From positions 1 through 64,000 of the forward strand of contig NZ_JAHYCB010000001.1 in assembly GCF_019430945.1 (NCBI RefSeq): a stretch of DNA of 64,000 nucleotides, given 5' to 3'. Each line of letters starts with the position of its first letter. Position 1 is the stretch's first letter. The stretch is from Neorhizobium populisoli (lineage in GTDB: Bacteria > Pseudomonadota > Alphaproteobacteria > Rhizobiales > Rhizobiaceae). Positions 13,179 through 51,468 of the stretch are shown one piece after another. Under the pieces are notes generated by a model. That model worked only from the letters and a program-made list of their open reading frames with translations, ran no database searches and was not told where the DNA came from. The position numbers were made by a program, and so were the translations under genes.

Positions 13179-16115
13179 ATGAGTGAACTGAAGAGCATTT
13201 CAATACGTGGTGCGCGCGAGCACAATTTGAAGGGCATCGACCTCGATCTGCCGCGCAATTCTTTGATCGTGATGACCGGCCTTTCCGGCTCCGGCAAGTC
13301 TTCGCTCGCTTTCGACACGATTTATGCGGAAGGCCAGCGGCGGTATGTCGAAAGCCTCTCTGCCTATGCACGCCAGTTCCTGGAAATGATGCAGAAGCCG
13401 GATGTCGACCAGATCGACGGCCTTTCGCCGGCAATCTCGATCGAACAGAAGACGACGTCGCGCAACCCGCGCTCGACCGTTGGCACGGTTACCGAAATCT
13501 ACGACTATATGCGCCTGCTTTTCGCGCGCGTCGGTGTCCCCTATTCGCCGGCCACAGGTTTGCCGATCGAAAGCCAGACCGTCAGCCAGATGGTCGACCG
13601 TGTCCTCGCCTTCGAGGAAGGCACCCGTCTTTATATTCTGGCGCCGATGATTCGTGGCCGCAAAGGCGAGTACAAAAAGGAACTCGCCGACCTGATGAAA
13701 AAGGGCTTTCAGCGCGTCAAGGTTGATGGGCAGTTCTACGAGATCGCCGATGTGCCGGCGCTCGACAAGAAATACAAGCACGACATCGATGTGGTCGTGG
13801 ACCGGCTCGTCGTGCGCTCGGATATTTCCGCGCGTCTGGCGGACAGCCTTGAAACGTCGCTGAAGCTTGCGGACGGCTTGGCCGTGGCGGAATTTGCCGA
13901 CAAGCCGCTGCCGGCGGAAGAAACGTCAGCGGGTGGTTCGGCCAACAAGTCGCTCAACGAAACGCATGAACGTGTGCTGTTTTCGGAAAAGTTCGCCTGC
14001 CCGGTCTCCGGCTTCACCATTCCGGAAATCGAGCCGCGGCTGTTCTCCTTCAACAATCCCTTCGGCGCCTGCCCGACCTGCGACGGTCTCGGCTCGCAGC
14101 AGAAGGTGGACGAGAACCTGATCGTTCCTGAACCGGCCCGCACCCTGCGTGACGGCGCCATTTCCCCGTGGGCGAAATCGACCTCTCCCTATTACAACCA
14201 GACGCTCGAAGCGCTGGGCAAAGTCTTCGGTTTCAAGCTATCGAGCCGTTGGAACGAGCTGTCCAGCGATGCGCAGAAGGCGATCCTGCAGGGAACCGAA
14301 GAGAAGATCGAGTTCAACTACGCGGACGGCGCCCGCTCCTACAAGACGGTCAAGAATTTCGAAGGCATCGTGCCGAACCTGGAGCGTCGCTGGAAGGAAA
14401 CCGACAGTGCCTGGGCGCGCGAGGATATCGAGCGCTACATGTCGGCAGCCCCCTGCCCGGCCTGCAACGGTTTTCGCCTGAAGCCGGAAGCACTGGCGGT
14501 CAAGATCCACAAGCTGCATATCGGCGAAGTGACGCAGATGTCGATCCGCACGGCGCGCGACTGGTTCGAAGTGCTGCCGGAAAGCCTGAACGCCAAGCAG
14601 AATGAGATTGCCGTTCGCATCCTCAAGGAAATCCGCGAACGCCTGCGCTTCCTGAACGATGTCGGTCTCGATTATCTCAGCCTGTCGCGCAATTCCGGCA
14701 CGCTGTCGGGCGGCGAAAGCCAGCGTATCCGGCTTGCCTCGCAGATCGGCTCAGGCCTGACGGGCGTGCTTTATGTGCTGGACGAACCGTCGATCGGCTT
14801 GCACCAGCGCGACAACGCTCGCCTGCTCGAAACGCTGAAACACCTGCGCGACATCGGCAACACTGTCATCGTCGTCGAGCATGACGAGGATGCGATCCTG
14901 ACGGCCGACTATGTCGTCGACATCGGTCCGGCCGCCGGTATCCATGGTGGTACGGTTGTCGCCGAAGGTACGCCGCAACAGGTCATGGCCAACCCGAAGT
15001 CACTGACCGGTAAATACCTTTCCGGTGAATTGGGCGTTGCCGTTCCGGCCGAGCGTCGCAAGCCCAAGAAGGGCAAGGAAATCAAGGTTTTTGGCGCACG
15101 CGGCAATAATCTCAAGAATGTCACGGCGGCGGTGCCGCTCGGCGTCTTCACGGCGGTGACCGGCGTATCAGGTGGTGGCAAATCCACCTTCCTGATCGAG
15201 ACGCTTTACAAGGCGGCGGCACGCCGCGTCATGGGTGCGCGTGAAATTCCGGCCGAACACGACAAGATCGACGGTTTTGAGTTCATCGACAAGGTGATCG
15301 ATATCGACCAGTCGCCAATCGGCCGCACGCCGCGCTCCAACCCTGCGACCTATACCGGCGCATTTACGCCGATCCGCGACTGGTTTGCCGGTCTGCCGGA
15401 AGCCAAGGCGCGCGGTTATGCGCCGGGCCGCTTCTCGTTCAACGTCAAGGGCGGCCGTTGCGAGGCCTGTCAGGGCGACGGCGTTATCAAGATCGAGATG
15501 CACTTCCTGCCGGATGTCTATGTCACCTGCGACGTCTGCCACGGCAAGCGCTACAATCGCGAAACGCTCGACGTGCATTTCAAGGGCAAGTCGATCGCCG
15601 ACGTGCTCGATATGACGGTCGAGGAAGGCGTCGAGTTCTTCTCGGCGGTTCCCGCGGTGCGCGACAAGCTGCAATCGCTGTTCGATGTCGGCCTTGGCTA
15701 TATCAAGGTCGGCCAGCAGGCCAATACGCTTTCGGGTGGCGAGGCACAGCGCGTCAAGCTAGCCAAGGAACTGTCGAAACGCTCTACGGGACGTACGCTC
15801 TACATCCTCGACGAGCCGACGACCGGTCTGCATTTCCATGACGTCGCAAAACTCTTGGAAATGCTGCACGAACTGGTGAATCAGGGGAATTCCGTCGTGG
15901 TGATCGAGCACAATCTCGAAGTCATCAAGACGGCCGACTGGATCATCGACATCGGTCCTGAAGGCGGCACGGGCGGTGGGGAAATTGTTGCGGCCGGCAC
16001 GCCGGAACAGATCGTCAAAGAAAAGCGGTCCTATACCGGCCAGTTCCTTAAGGAACTGCTGGAGCGGCGGCCCGCCAAGATAATAGACGCGAAAAAGGTG
16101 GAAGCGGCGGAGTAA
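13179..16115 (+). CDS. uvrA: Excinuclease ABC subunit A (UvrA)
   Basis: A 978-residue ATPase that scans DNA for bulky lesions and loads UvrB in nucleotide excision repair. It has two ABC modules: Walker [13 protein letters not shown] near the N-terminus and [10 protein letters not shown] in the second half, and signatures [14 protein letters not shown] and [14 protein letters not shown]. Zinc modules are visible (CPTCDGLG in the first half; CEACQGDG with CDVCHGKRY in the second). I chose the ATG at 13179, spaced correctly from GAAGG; the ATG two codons earlier, at 13173, is too close to it. A LexA box lies upstream. Confidence 0.97.
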
Positions 16116-46499: not shown

Positions 46500-46636
46500 T
46501 TAAAAGCTCCGACAGGCGGGCTTTCAAGGAGCCCCGTTCGCCCCCGAATTAATGTCTCGAAGCCCTGAATGCCAATCACCTTTTCGCTTCGCTTGGGAAA
46601 AGCGGCAAGAAGCCGCAATTTTGCTTCTTTTGCGGG

Positions 46637-46665
46637 TTGACCGCAGGGGGGCACCTGCCTATGTT
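46637..46665 (+). promoter_or_regulatory. Promoter of tRNA-Lys
   Basis: TTGACC at 46637-46642 and TATGTT at 46660-46665 with a 17-base spacer: a good housekeeping-type promoter whose start would fall about 30 bases before the tRNA. Confidence 0.65.
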
Positions 46666-46703
46666 CCGCGCACTTTCAGGGACGCGCTTCGTCGCGGCCA
46701 CGG

Positions 46704-46779
46704 GAGAGCGTAGCTCAGTCGGTAGAGCAACTGACTTTTAATCAGTAGGTCCAGGGTTCGAATCCCTGCGCTCTCACCA
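46704..46779 (+). tRNA. tRNA-Lys (anticodon TTT)
   Basis: A 76-base tRNA with CCA encoded. The acceptor arms are GAGAGCG and CGCTCTC, the D arm is TAGCTCAGTCGGTAGAGCA, the anticodon stem is ACTGA/TCAGT with loop CTTTTAA (anticodon TTT at 46737-46739), and the T arm contains GGTTCGAATCC. Prophage remnants begin right after it, which fits use of the tRNA as an integration site, though I find no repeat of its 3' end further on. Confidence 0.98.
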
Positions 46780-46982
46780 AAAACATCCAATGATCTCAAT
46801 CACCTAAGCAATGCAATTGGTGGAAATCATTACCTCAGAATACCGCCGTTTACCGCATATGGTGCCGGTTTAAGTCACATAGATGGCACTCGGCACACGG
46901 AAACCGCCCTGCCCTGTCGGGCAGAGTGGCGGCTGCCGACCGCTGGTTACATCGCGGGCGGTGGTCTGGCGCGCTTTTGGTT

Positions 46983-47178
46983 CTAGGCGGCAATCAAATA
47001 CTCCGCACGAACAAGCCGATGCGGGCGACCATACGATTCTCCGATGATCGATAAGGCATGCAGCGGGCTGCCTGGGGATGTGCGAGAACGGTCGGATTAA
47101 CCCGTGTAGTCCGTGAAAGGTGACGGTCTGCCCGACGACGAATCTATACGGAAGTTCTTCGGCCTTCGCCGCGGTATT
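46983..47178 (-). pseudogene. Fragment of a small 'YRFxVGQ' protein, frameshifted
   Basis: One minus-strand frame reads LPYRFVVGQTVTFHG and runs on for about 30 residues; another frame picks up with ALSIIGESYGRPHRLVRAE and ends at the TAG at 46983-46985. Together they resemble short rhizobial proteins that start with a YRF-type VGQxV motif and end with a YRVRAExLIA-like tail. A frameshift would explain the split. The match is from memory of the pattern and is weak. Confidence 0.35.
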
Positions 47179-47179
47179 A

Positions 47180-47357
47180 GAGACGAGCGATCTAACTGAA
47201 AAGCGCGGCCAAGAGCCTTGGATTTTGGATGCCGCAGCGCTTTCAGAAAGCGAACTGCAGCTTCTCCCTTGCCGTGTGGATCTGGAATAGGGCTATCATC
47301 GAACACCCAAGCCGGGTGGCTACGTGTCGCCGAGGGCGTCGTCTTCGTCTGATCCAA
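47180..47357 (-). pseudogene. Phage terminase large subunit, N-terminal fragment
   Basis: Starts at a TTG (47357) after AAAGGAGGCG and reads HPAWVFDDSPIPDPHGKGE, then RFLKALRHPKSKALGRAF, a close match to the beginning of phage large terminases that pump DNA into heads. Similarity stops after QLDR (about residue 58); the frame then runs on with unrelated residues to 47097. Without the ATPase (Walker) and nuclease domains it cannot work. It overlaps the end of the small-subunit gene, as in intact phages. Confidence 0.7.
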
Positions 47358-47666
47358 CGGCGCCTCCTTTATTCTTCGTGTGGCGGGCAGGCGTCAAGCC
47401 GAGCTTTGTGGCCAGCCTGCGAGAGGATTCCACGGCTTCCTTGACGAGGGTTGTTGCTGGGTGTCGCTTTATTTCACCGGTTGATGACACATACGTTGGG
47501 CCGTCCTTGCCACGATGCTTTCCGCCTATCGCATGTTGGCGACCGCCAGGCAGTAGGCCCTCGACCGTGCCTAGCTCGTGCGCGGCGATCTTGCTATCGG
47601 CGACGAGTTGCGGCAAGATGCGGCGTCGTCCGGTGCTGTGACTGCTGCTTTACGACCGCGAGCCAT
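47320..47666 (-). pseudogene. Phage terminase small subunit (P27-like), frameshifted
   Basis: An ATG at 47666 opens MARGRKAAVTAPDDAA, a typical small-terminase start, but that frame soon stops. The next frame carries on from about 47620 with VADSKIAAHELGTVEGLLPG, GGKHRGKDGPTYVS, and the C-terminal EAVESSRRLATKLGLTPAR, the helix found near the end of P27-type small terminases. The span, 347 bases, is not a multiple of three, which supports one frameshift. It would have recognised phage DNA for packaging. Confidence 0.6.
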
Positions 47667-47922
47667 CGAATTTCTCCAGATAGTTGGCCAAGGCTTTCTC
47701 GCGGATGGCCTCTATGAGTTCTGGGGATAAAATAGAGATGCCTCCTTCCCTCCGCCCGGGTAACTTCACCCACAACTGGCCAGACGGCTGTGATCGAATA
47801 TTGCAGTTGCGGAGCCTGAAGGGGAAAACGTCAACCTCAAAGGCCGCAACTAATTCGGAGCCACTCGCCGGAATGCACGATGCCGGTCTCATATTGCAGA
47901 TCTGAAAGGTAACCTCGGTCAT
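47650..47922 (-). CDS. Small phage-associated protein, unknown
   Basis: A 90-residue frame starting MTEVTFQICNMRPAS and ending EKFDGSRS. The mid-section (FEVDVFPFRLRNCNI, then LWVKLPGRREGGISI) looks like a beta-rich domain, followed by a helix, SPELIEAIREKALANYLEK. Similar small proteins occur next to terminase genes in rhizobial prophages, with unknown role. Its frame is continuous with the connector remnant upstream, and no strong ribosome site precedes the ATG at 47922, so it may now be read as a fusion or not at all. Confidence 0.4.
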   Translation of the reverse strand: MTEVTFQICNMRPASCIPASGSELVAAFEVDVFPFRLRNCNIRSQPSGQLWVKLPGRREGGISILSPELIEAIREKALANYLEKFDGSRS

Positions 47923-47924
47923 TC

Positions 47925-48215
47925 GAACGCATAACTGCGGCGCTCGCGCACTACAATCCCAGACCGACAGCGGCGTCTCGACGATCGTGGCGGCGACGAC
48001 GGACGCCTCACGGTTTTCGTACCAATGGCCGACAAGCTGCATCATGGCCTCGACGAGGTCGGCTGGTATAATTTCGAATTATTCCTCGATCTGGTAGCCG
48101 AGAAGGGACTCGAGATGAGCCTGCGAGGCGTCGATCTTAGCCTAATGAGTGCGTCGTTATCGTCATGGAGCAGACGCAGATTCTCCTTCGCATCGTCCAA
48201 GTCGACGATTGCCAT
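47925..48215 (-). pseudogene. Phage gp6-like head-tail connector, broken
   Basis: An ATG at 48215 begins MAIVDLDDAKENLRLLHDDND, the usual gp6 start. A frameshift near 48138 moves the match to the next frame (KIDASQAHLESLLGYQIEE). That frame then hits a TAA at 48079-48081, where CAA (Gln) would be expected, and resumes as FEIIPADLVEAMMQLVGHWYENREASVV. The C-terminal end is lost in a fusion to the next gene. Intact gp6 forms a ring between phage head and tail. Two separate lesions show it is dead. Confidence 0.7.
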
Positions 48216-48327
48216 CGCTGAAGTTCCTGGAGAGAATTGCGAAGATGACTACGCCGCTGGTTCAGGGGCGTTAGTCAAAAATTGACGACCGCCCCCTATG
48301 CGTGTTGTGGAGCAACAGGAGGCAGGT

Positions 48328-48534
48328 ATGCGTGACACCATCCAGAACAAGTTCTCGGGCATCTATGGTGAGTTGATGATTCTCAGACAGAGCATGTGGG
48401 CGCACAACTCCAAGTGCTCTCGCACACAAAAAGATGACATTATTCGGCTGACTGACGAGCTTAGAGAGCTCCAAAGTGAAACGGTTGACTTCATAGATTC
48501 GCAGGAAGACCAAATCCGCCTTCTTCGCGGATAG
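48328..48534 (+). CDS. Small coiled-coil protein, unknown
   Basis: A 68-residue frame on the plus strand, opposite to the phage genes. Strong ribosome site AGGAGG (48317-48322), five bases before the ATG at 48328; an earlier ATG at 48298 is in frame but less well placed. The C-terminal half (DDIIRLTDELRELQSETVDF) is strongly helical and charged, as in a short coiled coil. Low use of the GC-rich codons seen in neighbours suggests an accessory origin. It overlaps the end of the HNH gene by 44 bases. No family recognised. Confidence 0.45.
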   Translation: MRDTIQNKFSGIYGELMILRQSMWAHNSKCSRTQKDDIIRLTDELRELQSETVDFIDSQEDQIRLLRG

Positions 48535-48745
48535 CCTTCCGTCGGTTGCATGTGTCGTGGAATGGCTGCCAGTTGGACCGCGACCAGAATAGGCGCATGT
48601 CACCTTTTGCTGCGATGATGTGGTCCATCATATTAGCCTTGCGGCCGCAGCCGTATGCACATAGCGGGTTGCCGAGATCCGCCAGCCAAGCCTTGCTCTC
48701 GCGTGACCATTGGGCTGTGTAACCACGGCTGGCGGCGGTGCCCAC
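48491..48745 (-). CDS. HNH endonuclease, phage type
   Basis: An 84-residue protein of the kind found beside phage terminase genes, where it nicks DNA at the start of packaging. It opens with RGYTAQWSRESKAWL and carries the ββα-metal core DHIIAAKGDMRLFWSRSNWQPFH then CNRRK. The last His of the motif is Asn, a known variant. The start is a GTG at 48745; the ribosome site is weak. The CxxxC pair (CAYGCGRK) fits a structural zinc. May be functional, though its partner genes are broken. Confidence 0.65.
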   Translation of the reverse strand: MGTAASRGYTAQWSRESKAWLADLGNPLCAYGCGRKANMMDHIIAAKGDMRLFWSRSNWQPFHDTCNRRKAIREEGGFGLPANL

Positions 48746-48772
48746 GCATCATCATTCCGCTTTTGGTTAGCA

Positions 48773-48794
48773 ACTGCCGCCTTTAGACGGCAGT
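48773..48794. terminator. Small hairpin between HNH and knottin-like genes
   Basis: ACTGCCG (48773-48779) pairs with CGGCAGT (48788-48794) around CCTTTAGA. No T-run; purpose unclear. Confidence 0.3.
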
Positions 48795-48871
48795 CGTATT
48801 TAGTGCCGTTCGGTTCAGCGAAACCGCGGGGACATAAAACGTTGGGCGCGAGTTGTCATCATTTATTCCGC

Positions 48872-48902
48872 TTGACACGGAAAGGTTGCTCAGCAATATA
48901 AT
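48872..48902 (+). promoter_or_regulatory. Promoter of the knottin-like gene
   Basis: Perfect -35 (TTGACA, 48872-48877) and perfect -10 (TATAAT, 48897-48902) hexamers, with a 19-base spacer that is two bases longer than ideal. A start near 48909 would give a leader of about 20 bases carrying the ribosome site. Confidence 0.6.
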
Positions 48903-48930
48903 TCCCGTCAAATATAGGGAGGCGAATAAG

Positions 48931-49200
48931 ATGAGGAGAGCATTTGCAATTCTAACTCTAGCCGGACTATTCATGCCGAACGTGTCTAGTGGCTCTGATC
49001 TAGGATTTGTAATGCAGGCGAAATATCCACCGTCGATCAACATCTTAGGCCGCACTGAGAGTCCCAGACTTTCCCCCAGAAATAGTGACACGGAAATTGC
49101 ATGCAGCGGTTTGTATAGTCGATGCGATAGTCAAAACCCATGTTGCAAAGGATACTCCTGCTCAATGTGCGATGCGAACGGATATTGTGAGTGCAGATAG
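48931..49200 (+). CDS. Predicted secreted eight-cysteine, knottin-like peptide
   Basis: An 89-residue protein: signal peptide (FAILTLAGLFM core, cleavage likely near residue 20), a polar linker without cysteine (about 22-57), then a compact domain with all eight cysteines at 58, 65, 71, 72, 77, 80, 86 and 88. The spacing C-x6-C-x5-CC-x4-C-x2-C-x5-C-x-C resembles inhibitor-cystine-knot peptides such as spider toxins. The ribosome site GGGAGG lies eight bases before the ATG at 48931. AT-rich codons (four CTA, four AGA, one AGG, one TTA) differ from neighbours and suggest transfer. I know no named family; function unknown. Confidence 0.7.
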   Translation: MRRAFAILTLAGLFMPNVSSGSDLGFVMQAKYPPSINILGRTESPRLSPRNSDTEIACSGLYSRCDSQNPCCKGYSCSMCDANGYCECR

Positions 49201-49205
49201 GCAAG

Positions 49206-49240
49206 TGACTGGATGCGAAATCAGATCCAGCATCCAGTCA
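49206..49240 (+). terminator. Hairpin directly after the knottin-like gene
   Basis: Perfect 11-base arms (TGACTGGATGC at 49206-49216, complement at 49230-49240), extended by GCAA/TTGC with one mismatch, starting five bases past the stop. The T-run is weak, but its position makes it the likely end of this one-gene transcript. Confidence 0.6.
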
Positions 49241-49926
49241 TTGCAATTACGCCACCGGCCGCTACGAGGCGTAGTCCATAACCGAAGACACGGCAGCCGC
49301 AAGAGAATAGCCCTGTTTATCCGCTTTCGGAAAAGGCTCTTTCCTCAGCCGGTGGACATTAAAAATTGCTCATCTTCCCCAGCAAAACCCTGCATTACAA
49401 AAACTTCAGGTTTCATTTGACGGCCGAGGACCAACTGTCTGCAATGCTGGCTCATCCAAGCCATTGAAATTAAAAACATTCTCGAAGTCCTGAATCTCTC
49501 AGAGGCTGTAATTCCGTCGAAAATGCGGCGCCTGAAGGCCAGCCAACCTTATCTATAATTAAGCTGACGTTTCAACGGCCGAGGCGTAAGCCTTTCTCAA
49601 GGCTGAATACTGCCGGCGACCACAAGGAGGTCGTGACGCGACAGTATGAGACAGTCGGGACTATCTGAAGACCGCGGAGCTCGTCATGCGTCCGTCCACC
49701 TCCAAACTCCAGCATTTGCCGGCCTGTCACACGTCCTGCAGCGCCGCGCATCGGACTGGCACGCCTACCGACCGATTGCGACCGTGATATCCCGCAGCCG
49801 ATAGCTGTCCGCAATCCTCCATATCCGAAAACACATCCTGACCGGCAACGGCCTACGCCGTCGCACGACCACCTATGCCCGCAGACCGCCCTCTCGTTTG
49901 CGCGGCACCAAAGAAAGGAAAAGACC
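49241..49926. other. Gene-poor stretch before degP
   Basis: About 690 bases without a gene I can support. One minus-strand run of about 30 codons ending at the stop at 49262-49264 (KADKQGYSLAAAVSSVMDYAS) looks protein-like and could be a relic. The last 200 bases are GC-rich and may be the long leader of the protease gene. The AT-rich first half resembles the accessory DNA before it, so the border of the foreign segment probably lies near 49560. Confidence 0.4.
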
Positions 49927-51468
49927 ATGTCCGACATTCTCCGCAAACACCGGTTCGCAGCGCTTCTCGGCGCAGCCATCATCGCAGCACCGCTCGCGCT
50001 GCCGATGGTCATCGGCAACAATGCCGCCTACGCGGCCGCCGGCACGTCCACGGCCGTGCCCGGCATTGTCGCGCCGGGCGGTTCATTCGCTCCCGTCGTC
50101 GCGGCAGACAAGCCGGCCGTCGTCACCATCACCACCACGATGAAGGCCGAAAACGTCAGTTCCGACGACGACAGTGATTCTCCGCTTGGCGGCAATTCGC
50201 CTTTCGACGAGCAGTTCCGGCAGTTCTTCGGCCAGCAGGGTGTCCCGATGCCTCGCCAGGCGCCGCAGCAGCGCCAGCAGGCTCAGCGGGCCGAAGCGCT
50301 CGGCTCGGGCTTCGTCATCTCGTCCGATGGCTATATCGTCACCAACAACCATGTCATCGACAAGGCGATGAGCATCAAGGTCACGCTCGACGACGGTAGC
50401 GAAGTGCCCGCGAAGCTGATCGGAGCCGATCCGAAATCCGACCTCGCCGTCATCAAGATCGAATCGAAGAAGCCACTCGCCACCGTCACCTGGGGTGATT
50501 CCGACAGGCTGAATGCCGGCGATCAGATTCTTGCGATCGGCAATCCTTTCGGTATCGGCACGACGGTCACCGCCGGCATCGTTTCGGCCCGCGGCCGCGA
50601 TCTGCACAGCGGTCCTTATGACGACTTCATTCAGATCGATGCGCCGATCAACCATGGCAATTCCGGCGGTCCGCTGGTCGATCTCGAAGGCAAGGTCGTC
50701 GGCATCAATACGGCGATCTATTCGCCGAACGGCGGCAGCGTCGGCGTCGGGTTTGCCATCCCGTCCGATCAGGCCCAGAAGGTCGTCGCCAAGCTGATGA
50801 AGGACGGCTCGATCGAACACGGCTTTATCGGCGTGCAGATCCAGCCGGTGACGTCCGACGTTGCCAATGCGATCGGGCTCGACAAGGCGGAAGGTGCTCT
50901 GGTCGCCAATGTCAGCGGCAGCACGCCGGCCTCCAAGGCGGGCATCGAGACCGGCGACGTCATCACCGGGCTCGGCGGCCAGCCCGTGAAGTCGCCGCGC
51001 GATCTGTCGCGCATGGTGGCCGATCTGGCTCCGGGCGCCAAGCAGAGCCTTACCGTCTGGCGTCAGGGCGCACCGAAGGATCTCAGCATCACGATCGGCG
51101 GCAATGACAGGGACGAACAGCAGGCTTCCGCCGATGACGGCAAGAAGTCGGGCTCGGAAGCGCAGCGCGTCCCGACAATCGGCATCGGCCTTGCGGATAT
51201 CACTCCGGATGTTCGTCAGGCGCTGAACCTGTCCCGGCGTGAAGCGGGCGCCTTGATCGAAAGCGTCGCTCCCGACAAGCCGGCCGCCGATGCCGGCCTG
51301 CAGCCGGGCGATGTCATCGTCTCGGTCAACCAGCTGCCGGTCAAATCGGCCAAGGAAGCCAAGAGCGCCGTTGCGGATGCCGGCAAGGCCGGTCGAAAGT
51401 CGGTATTGCTGCTCATCCAGCGCGGCGAGAACCAGACCTTCGTGGCGGTTCCCTTCGCGATTGGCTGA
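49927..51468 (+). CDS. DegP/HtrA-like periplasmic serine protease (Do family)
   Basis: A 513-residue protease/chaperone that removes misfolded envelope proteins. Signal peptide or anchor at residues 10-37 (AALLGAAIIAAPLALP...AYAA). The trypsin-like domain has His142 (TNNHVID), Asp172 (SDLAVIKI) and Ser246 (GNSGGPLVD). Two PDZ domains follow: GFIGVQIQPVTSDVA from about 290, and a second from about 415 (GIGLADITPDVRQAL) to the end. A Gln-rich loop (QAPQQRQQAQRAEA) precedes the protease core. Ribosome site AAAGGAAAAGACC. Likely induced by envelope stress, but no such site is clear upstream. Confidence 0.95.
   Translation: MSDILRKHRFAALLGAAIIAAPLALPMVIGNNAAYAAAGTSTAVPGIVAPGGSFAPVVAADKPAVVTITTTMKAENVSSDDDSDSPLGGNSPFDEQFRQFFGQQGVPMPRQAPQQRQQAQRAEALGSGFVISSDGYIVTNNHVIDKAMSIKVTLDDGSEVPAKLIGADPKSDLAVIKIESKKPLATVTWGDSDRLNAGDQILAIGNPFGIGTTVTAGIVSARGRDLHSGPYDDFIQIDAPINHGNSGGPLVDLEGKVVGINTAIYSPNGGSVGVGFAIPSDQAQKVVAKLMKDGSIEHGFIGVQIQPVTSDVANAIGLDKAEGALVANVSGSTPASKAGIETGDVITGLGGQPVKSPRDLSRMVADLAPGAKQSLTVWRQGAPKDLSITIGGNDRDEQQASADDGKKSGSEAQRVPTIGIGLADITPDVRQALNLSRREAGALIESVAPDKPAADAGLQPGDVIVSVNQLPVKSAKEAKSAVADAGKAGRKSVLLLIQRGENQTFVAVPFAIG

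What the first reader, a model, noticed from the sequence alone, without database searches (positions are those of the whole stretch)
48872..49240. Knottin-like secreted peptide gene with its own promoter, in the accessory segment
The 89-residue product has a signal peptide and then eight cysteines packed into its last 32 residues, spaced C-x6-C-x5-CC-x4-C-x2-C-x5-C-x-C. That is close to the inhibitor-cystine-knot pattern of spider and plant defence peptides and is rare in bacteria. The gene is a complete unit: perfect TTGACA and TATAAT hexamers, GGGAGG ribosome site eight bases from the ATG, and an 11-base-pair hairpin right after the stop. Codons are AT-rich and unlike the neighbours, and the gene sits beside a decayed prophage at a tRNA. 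An effector, toxin or protease inhibitor aimed at a host or competitor is conceivable. Family and function are unknown to me.
Basis: partly seen in the sequence, partly recalled or inferred. Interest (0 to 1): 0.82.

Follow-up and report, generated by a model that had tools for sequence, protein, structure and literature searches.

The report
Orphan knottin-like peptide gene in prophage remnant
A soil-bacterium relative of rhizobia carries, in the ruins of a virus inserted at a tRNA gene, one intact gene for a small, probably exported peptide whose sequence resembles the knotted peptides of spider venoms and sponges, and no relative of it turned up in the bacteria and phages searched.

Summary
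Window 48931-49200 (+) encodes 89 residues: a signal-like start, a linker, and eight cysteines (C-x6-C-x5-CC-x4-C-x2-C-x5-C-x-C) in the last 32 residues. Upstream lies the genome's only exact TTGACA-N15..20-TATAAT (spacer 19); a strong hairpin without T run follows the stop. The cysteine block matches solved knottins better than spacing alone explains: best PDB E 0.0028, against 0.2 for the best of eight cysteine-fixed shuffles. Pfam Toxin_12 is hit only below its cut-off. Single-sequence structure models were inconclusive. The gene sits in a 2,577-bp insert at the 3' end of tRNA-Lys, seen empty in two relatives, with broken terminase, adaptor and HNH genes of a known phage type. No credible homologue appeared in 199 relatives, 396 others of the order, 397 others of the phylum, phage or plasmid records, or cysteine-spacing scans of genome and viral contigs. 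Best reading: an independently transcribed phage cargo gene (moron) for an exported cystine-knot miniprotein, still open while the prophage decayed. Export, fold and target are inferred. A prophage-borne bacterial knottin would be a new variant of a known scaffold.

The parts
48872..48877 (+). -35 hexamer TTGACA
   Evidence: sequence; with 48897-48902 the only exact TTGACA-N15..20-TATAAT in the genome
48897..48902 (+). -10 hexamer TATAAT, 19-bp spacer
   Evidence: sequence; spacer outside 16-18
48917..48922 (+). ribosome-binding site GGGAGG, 8 bases before the ATG
   Evidence: sequence
48931..49200 (+). knottin-like peptide gene, 89 aa, stop included
   Evidence: GC3 0.449
48931..48996 (+). 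likely Sec signal peptide, residues 1-22 (cleavage between about 20 and 22 by eye; no signal-peptide program was available)
   Evidence: MRR then a hydrophobic core, Kyte-Doolittle mean up to 2.35 over 11 residues
49102..49197 (+). eight-cysteine knottin-like domain, residues 58-89
   Evidence: control shuffles
49201..49244 (+). terminator-like hairpin, no T run
   Evidence: z -5.5
46704..46779 (+). tRNA-Lys(TTT), integration site
46780..49356 (.). 2,577-bp insert between the tRNA-Lys 3' end and chromosomal sequence (edges ambiguous by two bases)
   Evidence: (L384, L385)
47100..47393 (-). remnant of the phage gene after TerS (large terminase by position, recalled)
   Evidence: 68% identity to L411, matches in 11 loci
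47323..47616 (-). terminase small subunit remnant
   Evidence: phrog_83 E 4.1e-8
47653..48215 (-). head-tail adaptor remnant, in two overlapping frames
   Evidence: phrog_40 E 5.3e-5 and 0.0085
48298..48534 (+). 78-aa ORF in the slot where related phages have an opposite-strand ORF
   Evidence: only weak family hits, E>=0.011
48491..48847 (-). phage HNH endonuclease gene, reading frame broken near its 5' part
   Evidence: phrog_2323 E 1.9e-15; DNA homology to L411 over 48564-48847, in two frames

Best explanation
A cargo gene (moron) of a temperate phage that once integrated at tRNA-Lys. It carries its own sigma-70-type promoter, ribosome site and terminator-like hairpin, so it can be transcribed in the lysogen without the phage programme. 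The product is exported by the Sec pathway, the signal sequence is removed, and the C-terminal 32 residues are oxidised in the periplasm into a four-disulfide inhibitor-cystine-knot miniprotein. By analogy with 8-cysteine agatoxins (recalled) the pairing would be 58-72, 65-77, 71-88 and 80-86. The rest of the phage has decayed while this gene stayed open. The folded peptide most likely leaves the cell (lysis or outer-membrane vesicles) and binds a protein target of another organism, eukaryotic or bacterial, rather than disrupting membranes: residues 58-89 hold three basic and three acidic residues. Shown: ORF, cysteine array, promoter consensus, hairpin, insert, phage decay, residue-level similarity to knottins. 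Inferred: expression, export, fold, pairing, target. My probabilities: real expressed gene 0.8; exported 0.8; knottin fold 0.6; acts on another organism 0.35-0.4.
For: Cys domain against PDB: best E 0.0028; 26 sequences at E<=10, of which 23 bear names that I know as knottin-type peptides (spider toxins, asteropsins, PcFK1), two I cannot place (ABU8-3, Aca Toxin 1) and one is an eggshell-membrane protein (fold class by name, recalled). Eight shuffles with cysteines fixed: best E none, 0.32, none, 3.5, none, 0.2, 1.0, 0.55; 4 of 8 hit a knottin-type peptide, at most two such hits each. Pfam Toxin_12 E 0.01; of the five shuffles given to Pfam none hit it. Only exact consensus promoter pair of the genome. 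Hairpin z -5.5. GC3 0.449 against 0.766-0.80. Insert, with the empty site clear in 2 of 16 stretches of relatives compared, and broken phage genes in the order of related phage loci. Of 20 HNH loci mapped (of 38 found), the 7 with HNH most like this one (L409-L415) include 6 with an opposite-strand ORF of at least 70 aa beside HNH, two with a signal-peptide-like start by a crude hydropathy rule. Morons: mainly late-region genes of different composition that may have own promoter and terminator (passage of PMC8065619).
Against: No credible homologue in any search made. Toxin_12 scores 16.9, under its cut-off of 21; an E<=10 search with that family also rings at a second place of the own genome with the same bits (15.1 against 15.2) and in 8 of 14 control genomes, none over the cut-off, so the Pfam hit alone proves nothing. 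Spacing alone already led 4 of 8 shuffles to a knottin-type chain. The gene is not in the usual cargo slot of the related phages but on the other side of HNH. No repeat of the tRNA 3' end was found at the right edge. Spacer is 19 bp and the hairpin lacks a T run. No expression data.
Confidence: 0.4

Rival explanations
1. Same gene and export, but a periplasmic phage function: a disulfide-rich superinfection-exclusion or lysogeny factor that protects the host cell from other phages, not a peptide aimed at another organism.
For: Prophage setting; own promoter suits lysogenic expression; two related phage loci have small ORFs with signal-like starts beside HNH.
Against: No match better than E 3 in 50,697 phage records and no relative confirmed in viral contigs; knottin-like residues point to a binding miniprotein; the phage itself is broken.
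Confidence: 0.2
2. A cysteine-rich orphan, perhaps born de novo or from mobile DNA of low GC, expressed but without a cystine knot or extracellular target; the likeness to spider toxins is convergence of a short Cys-rich segment.
For: No homologue; Toxin_12 below cut-off, and sub-threshold hits to it are common; inconclusive models; 4 of 8 shuffles with these cysteines also hit a knottin-type chain.
Against: Best E 70-fold better than the best shuffle, and 23-25 knottin-type hits against at most 2; complete expression signals around it.
Confidence: 0.25
3. Recent lateral transfer of a knottin domain from a eukaryote (plant, fungus, arthropod or nematode) into a phage or the host.
For: Closest sequences at hand are animal knottins; composition foreign to the host; DNA absent from 56 congeners.
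Against: Only PDB and Pfam hold eukaryotic sequence here; best match is a distant 21-bit hit, so no donor is indicated; bacterial expression signals are fully formed.
Confidence: 0.1
4. Not a gene: a chance frame in decaying DNA.
For: Region is decaying; four other frames of the window reach 7 Cys in 32 residues; no homologue.
Against: Signal-like start, ribosome site, genome-unique consensus promoter and hairpin all in register; knottin likeness beyond the cysteines.
Confidence: 0.05

Closest known systems
Theraphotoxin-type spider knottins (Pfam PF07740 Toxin_12; Jingzhaotoxin-3, PDB 2i1t)
   Same: C-x6-C, CC and the next C in line; R/K before the second Cys and P-CC-K-G-Y-x-C-S around the pair (alignment)
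   Different: Those have six cysteines and come from spiders (recalled); here eight, in a bacterium; score below the family cut-off
Mu-/omega-agatoxins (8-cysteine knottins, PDB 1eit)
   Same: Eight cysteines ending in C-x5..6-C-x-C (recalled); 1eit was hit by one shuffle that keeps the spacing
   Different: Not hit by the real sequence; spacing differs by one at several places (recalled)
Asteropsins, sponge knottins (PDB 2n2g, 2m3j)
   Different: Sponge peptides with three disulfides (recalled); weak scores
Phage morons / lysogenic conversion genes
   Same: Own promoter and terminator, foreign composition, among late phage genes (definition: PMC8065619 passage)
   Different: I saw no knottin-encoding moron in the listings (8 of 122 and 8 of 67 papers listed); the phage here is broken
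Melampsora MLP124266, fungal knottin effector (PMC6889267)
   Same: Disordered N-terminal half followed by a C-terminal knottin (passages)
   Different: Fungal, with a solved structure; no sequence link tested

Membership tests
Inhibitor cystine knot (knottin) fold | At least six cysteines in the order C-x-C-x-CC-x-C-x-C with knottin-like loop lengths | tested here: met
Inhibitor cystine knot (knottin) fold | Disulfide III-VI threaded through I-IV and II-V, beta-sheet core | tested here: inconclusive
   single-sequence models pLDDT 67 and 75, no significant fold match; disulfides not measured
Pfam PF07740 Toxin_12 | Score above curated cut-off (21 bits) | tested here: not met
   16.4 bits full length, 16.9 bits domain
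Secreted peptide | N-terminal signal peptide | tested here: inconclusive
   charged start and hydrophobic core by hydropathy; no prediction program or secretion data
Phage moron | Own promoter and terminator | tested here: met
   by sequence only; with a 19-bp spacer and no T run
Phage moron | Composition unlike its surroundings | tested here: met
   GC 0.472 against insert 0.547 and window 0.599; GC3 0.449 against 0.766-0.80
Phage moron | Lies within phage late genes of an integrated phage | tested here: met
   next to HNH, adaptor and terminase remnants inside the tRNA-Lys insert; phage homology on one side only, right att repeat not found
Phage moron | Benefit to the lysogen | not testable with these tools
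   no phenotype or expression data

The most novel reading that the evidence does not exclude
A temperate phage of Rhizobiaceae carried a true four-disulfide knottin as a lysogenic-conversion gene, and the bacterium has kept it, under the genome's only exact consensus promoter, as an exported binder of a eukaryotic or bacterial protein: a venom-type scaffold recruited in a bacterium.
Probability: 0.3. Interest if true: 0.85.

Novelty: new variant of a known kind. Interest (0 to 1): 0.6.

Why it matters
Knottins are known mainly from eukaryotes (recalled). My paper searches for bacterial or prophage knottins showed none in bacteria among the titles and abstract openings listed; several lists were cut, and I read only passages of four papers. 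A phage-borne bacterial knottin would show that the scaffold can arise in or move into bacteria, would give an easily produced stable miniprotein, and would make a testable case of how plant- or soil-associated bacteria use such peptides.

Tried and rejected
Homologues by protein: own genome 1, itself; 200 relatives including the own genome, 3 weak hits besides it (E 4e-4, 0.005, 0.007), no cysteine array in any frame; order 396 others, 11 weak matches in 10 genomes at E<=0.05, none with a relaxed knottin pattern in any frame; phylum 397 others, none at 0.005; these samples overlap. Plasmids only E>=5, phages only E>=3. Viral contigs: 7 stretches met a peptide pattern, none a relative. DNA around the gene: 0 of 56 other genomes of the genus.

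Six-Cys plus Gly: limit again, 122 matches, 46 without stop, 12 of these with at most 8 Cys, none knottin-like by eye. The same with three non-T codon starts ran to the end: 47 stretches, 27 without stop, none a small secreted knottin by eye; L190 and L259 are otherwise cysteine-rich proteins. Genomes, 7-Cys plus Gly plus non-T starts: 56 stretches, 41 without stop, none a small secreted knottin by eye; real-looking ones are cysteine-rich tails or repeats, e.g. L274, L279, L283, L291, L298, L299, L319, L323. Agatoxin-type spacing in viral contigs: 12 stretches, 9 without stop, all nine repeat-like. Such exact patterns miss relatives with other loop lengths or without the Gly.

Structure: models of 37 and 33 residues gave no significant match in PDB; the first gave 13 matches at E>=3.1 among viral proteins. 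Families: no NCBIfam or PHROGs hit for the knottin-like protein. Cys-rich ORFs of 30-200 aa in 67 HNH-bearing loci: two frames, neither knottin-like by eye. The longer frame with a TTG start at 48853 (115 aa) and the antisense frame 48783-49091 were set aside as less well supported. No direct repeat of at least 14 bp within 46600-50100. In one search two contig-edge loci (L399, L408) were read at an assumed offset; one search rescanned them in all frames.

Full report
What was checked. The window frame 48931-49200 on the + strand gives 89 residues. Residues 2-3 are arginines, followed by a hydrophobic core, as in Sec signal peptides; no signal-peptide program was at hand. The stretch up to residue 57 is cysteine-free. 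Residues 58-89 hold eight cysteines spaced 6, 5, 0, 4, 2, 5, 1. Of 886 stop-to-stop frames of the window of at least 40 aa this is the only one with eight cysteines in 32 residues, and it is the only frame that fits a relaxed knottin pattern. Four other frames reach seven cysteines, so density alone is not decisive.

Expression signals. TTGACA and TATAAT are exact but 19 bp apart. A whole-genome search for the exact pair with a 15-20 bp spacer finds one site in 6.84 Mb, this one; the backward control finds none. GGGAGG lies eight bases before the ATG. Behind the stop a hairpin of 15 pairs with one bulge forms; the 63 nt folded give -26.2 kcal/mol (z -5.5, 0 of 200 shuffles as good). It has no T run, so it may be a weak terminator or a 3' stabiliser. 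GC3 is 0.449 against 0.766-0.80 for three neighbouring genes.

Likeness to knottins. The full protein hits 19 PDB sequences at E<=10, best Jingzhaotoxin-3 at 0.02. The 37-residue cysteine block alone hits 26, best 0.0028. Of these, 23 bear names that I know as knottin-type peptides, two I cannot place, and one is an eggshell-membrane protein (fold class by name, recalled). Eight shuffles with the cysteines fixed gave best E-values of none, 0.32, none, 3.5, none, 0.2, 1.0 and 0.55; four of the eight met a knottin-type chain, at most two each. So the spacing alone can lead to knottins, and the residues between the cysteines (R before C2, P-CC-K-G-Y-x-C-S) add to it. Pfam Toxin_12 gives E 0.015 and 0.01, under its cut-off; five of the eight shuffles were given to Pfam and none hit it. 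Against this, a loose Toxin_12 search of the own genome rings at a second place with the same bits and in 8 of 14 control genomes, none over the cut-off, so that score is no proof by itself.

Where it sits. tRNA-Lys ends at 46779. In two of the 16 stretches of relatives compared (L384, L385) the sequence that matches the window up to 46779 runs on into the sequence that matches from 49357, with two bases shared (letters). The window thus holds an insert of 2,577 bp at 46780-49356. Several other congeners have the tRNA and the DegP-side sequence close together too, but with unmatched sequence between. The same tRNA is used elsewhere: in G021 a 49-bp copy of the tRNA 3' part lies 13.4 kb downstream, with an integrase-like gene next to it (gene named by eye). 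In the window no such repeat was found.

The insert is a broken prophage. On the - strand lie a terminase small subunit remnant (phrog_83, 4.1e-8), a head-tail adaptor remnant (phrog_40, 5.3e-5) and an HNH endonuclease (phrog_2323, 1.9e-15). DNA and frame-by-frame comparison with viral contigs shows phage homology from about 47100 to 48847, with the HNH frame broken. The order is that of viral contigs L410 and L411 and of genome G933. I mapped 20 of the 38 viral HNH loci; of the seven most alike (L409-L415) six have an opposite-strand ORF beside HNH, and in L410 and L411 it starts like a signal peptide by a crude rule. L410's product hits Pfam PAGK 'phage-encoded virulence factor' only at E 0.043, residues 6-38. 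In the window that slot holds a 78-aa ORF (48298-48534). The knottin-like gene lies on the other side of HNH, divergent from it; its -35 hexamer is 25 bp beyond the end of phage homology. I read it as a moron: foreign composition, own promoter and terminator, beside late phage genes, as described in PMC8065619 (passage seen) and PMC6469090 (passages seen).

Distribution. The 501-bp stretch around the gene is absent from the 56 other genomes of the genus searched. The protein or its domain has no credible match in 199 other relatives, 396 others of the order or 397 others of the phylum; these samples overlap. Cysteine-spacing scans of genome contigs (84,980 species; seven Cys plus Gly) and viral contigs (six Cys plus Gly) found no small secreted knottin by eye. 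Plasmid and phage records gave nothing below E 3. The gene is an orphan at this depth. The host belongs near the Rhizobiaceae by the company of its matches; the nearest named record in the plasmid collection is Shinella sp. PSBB067, 79% over 32% of a 16.7-kb query and 82% over 754 bp upstream of the tRNA. The genus is not settled.

Mechanism. Most likely the peptide is made in the lysogen from its own promoter, exported, oxidised in the periplasm and released, and binds a protein of another organism. Residues 58-89 hold three basic and three acidic residues (residues 53-89: net -2), which speaks against a membrane-active cationic peptide. The main rivals are a periplasmic phage-exclusion factor and a non-knotted orphan.

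Literature. Searches for bacterial or prophage knottins showed no bacterial knottin among the titles and abstract openings listed; lists were cut (20 of 26; 20 of 60; 10 of 182; 8 of 67). 'Bacterial knottin' as a phrase has 0 papers. I saw passages of PMC6889267, PMC2662799, PMC6469090 and PMC8065619, and listings of the rest. The library lacks most subscription journals, so this is weak evidence of absence.

Verdict. Observation confirmed; interpretation partly supported. Interest 0.6: unusual and cheap to test, but an orphan whose fold is unproved.

Noticed in passing
L391 (G021:C22:417500-433000), 286-361 and 13785-13833: A 13.4-kb element sits at the same tRNA-Lys in a congener, bounded by a 49-bp perfect copy of the tRNA 3' part, with an integrase-like gene at the inner right end. 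G012, G049, G044 and G003 also show extra pieces that match the tRNA-Lys 3' part (80-98%), so the site may be an integration hotspot.
   Followed up: partly
L410 6258-6710 (-), L411 6247-6675 (-), L448 1025-1477 (+): Related phage loci have variable opposite-strand ORFs beside HNH; some start like signal peptides; L410 and L448 give a weak PAGK hit, L411 none.
   Followed up: partly
window 48298-48534 (+): 78-aa ORF in the cargo slot of the broken prophage, only weak family hits, overlapping the HNH remnant.
   Followed up: no
window 48872-48902: The only exact TTGACA-N15..20-TATAAT in a 6.84-Mb genome; exact consensus promoters are strikingly rare in this GC-rich host.
   Followed up: partly
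L298, L319, L274, L279, L283, L291, L299: Cys-rich proteins of a myxobacterium, an archaeon and actinobacteria share the seven-cysteine spacing inside cysteine-dense tails or repeats.
   Followed up: no
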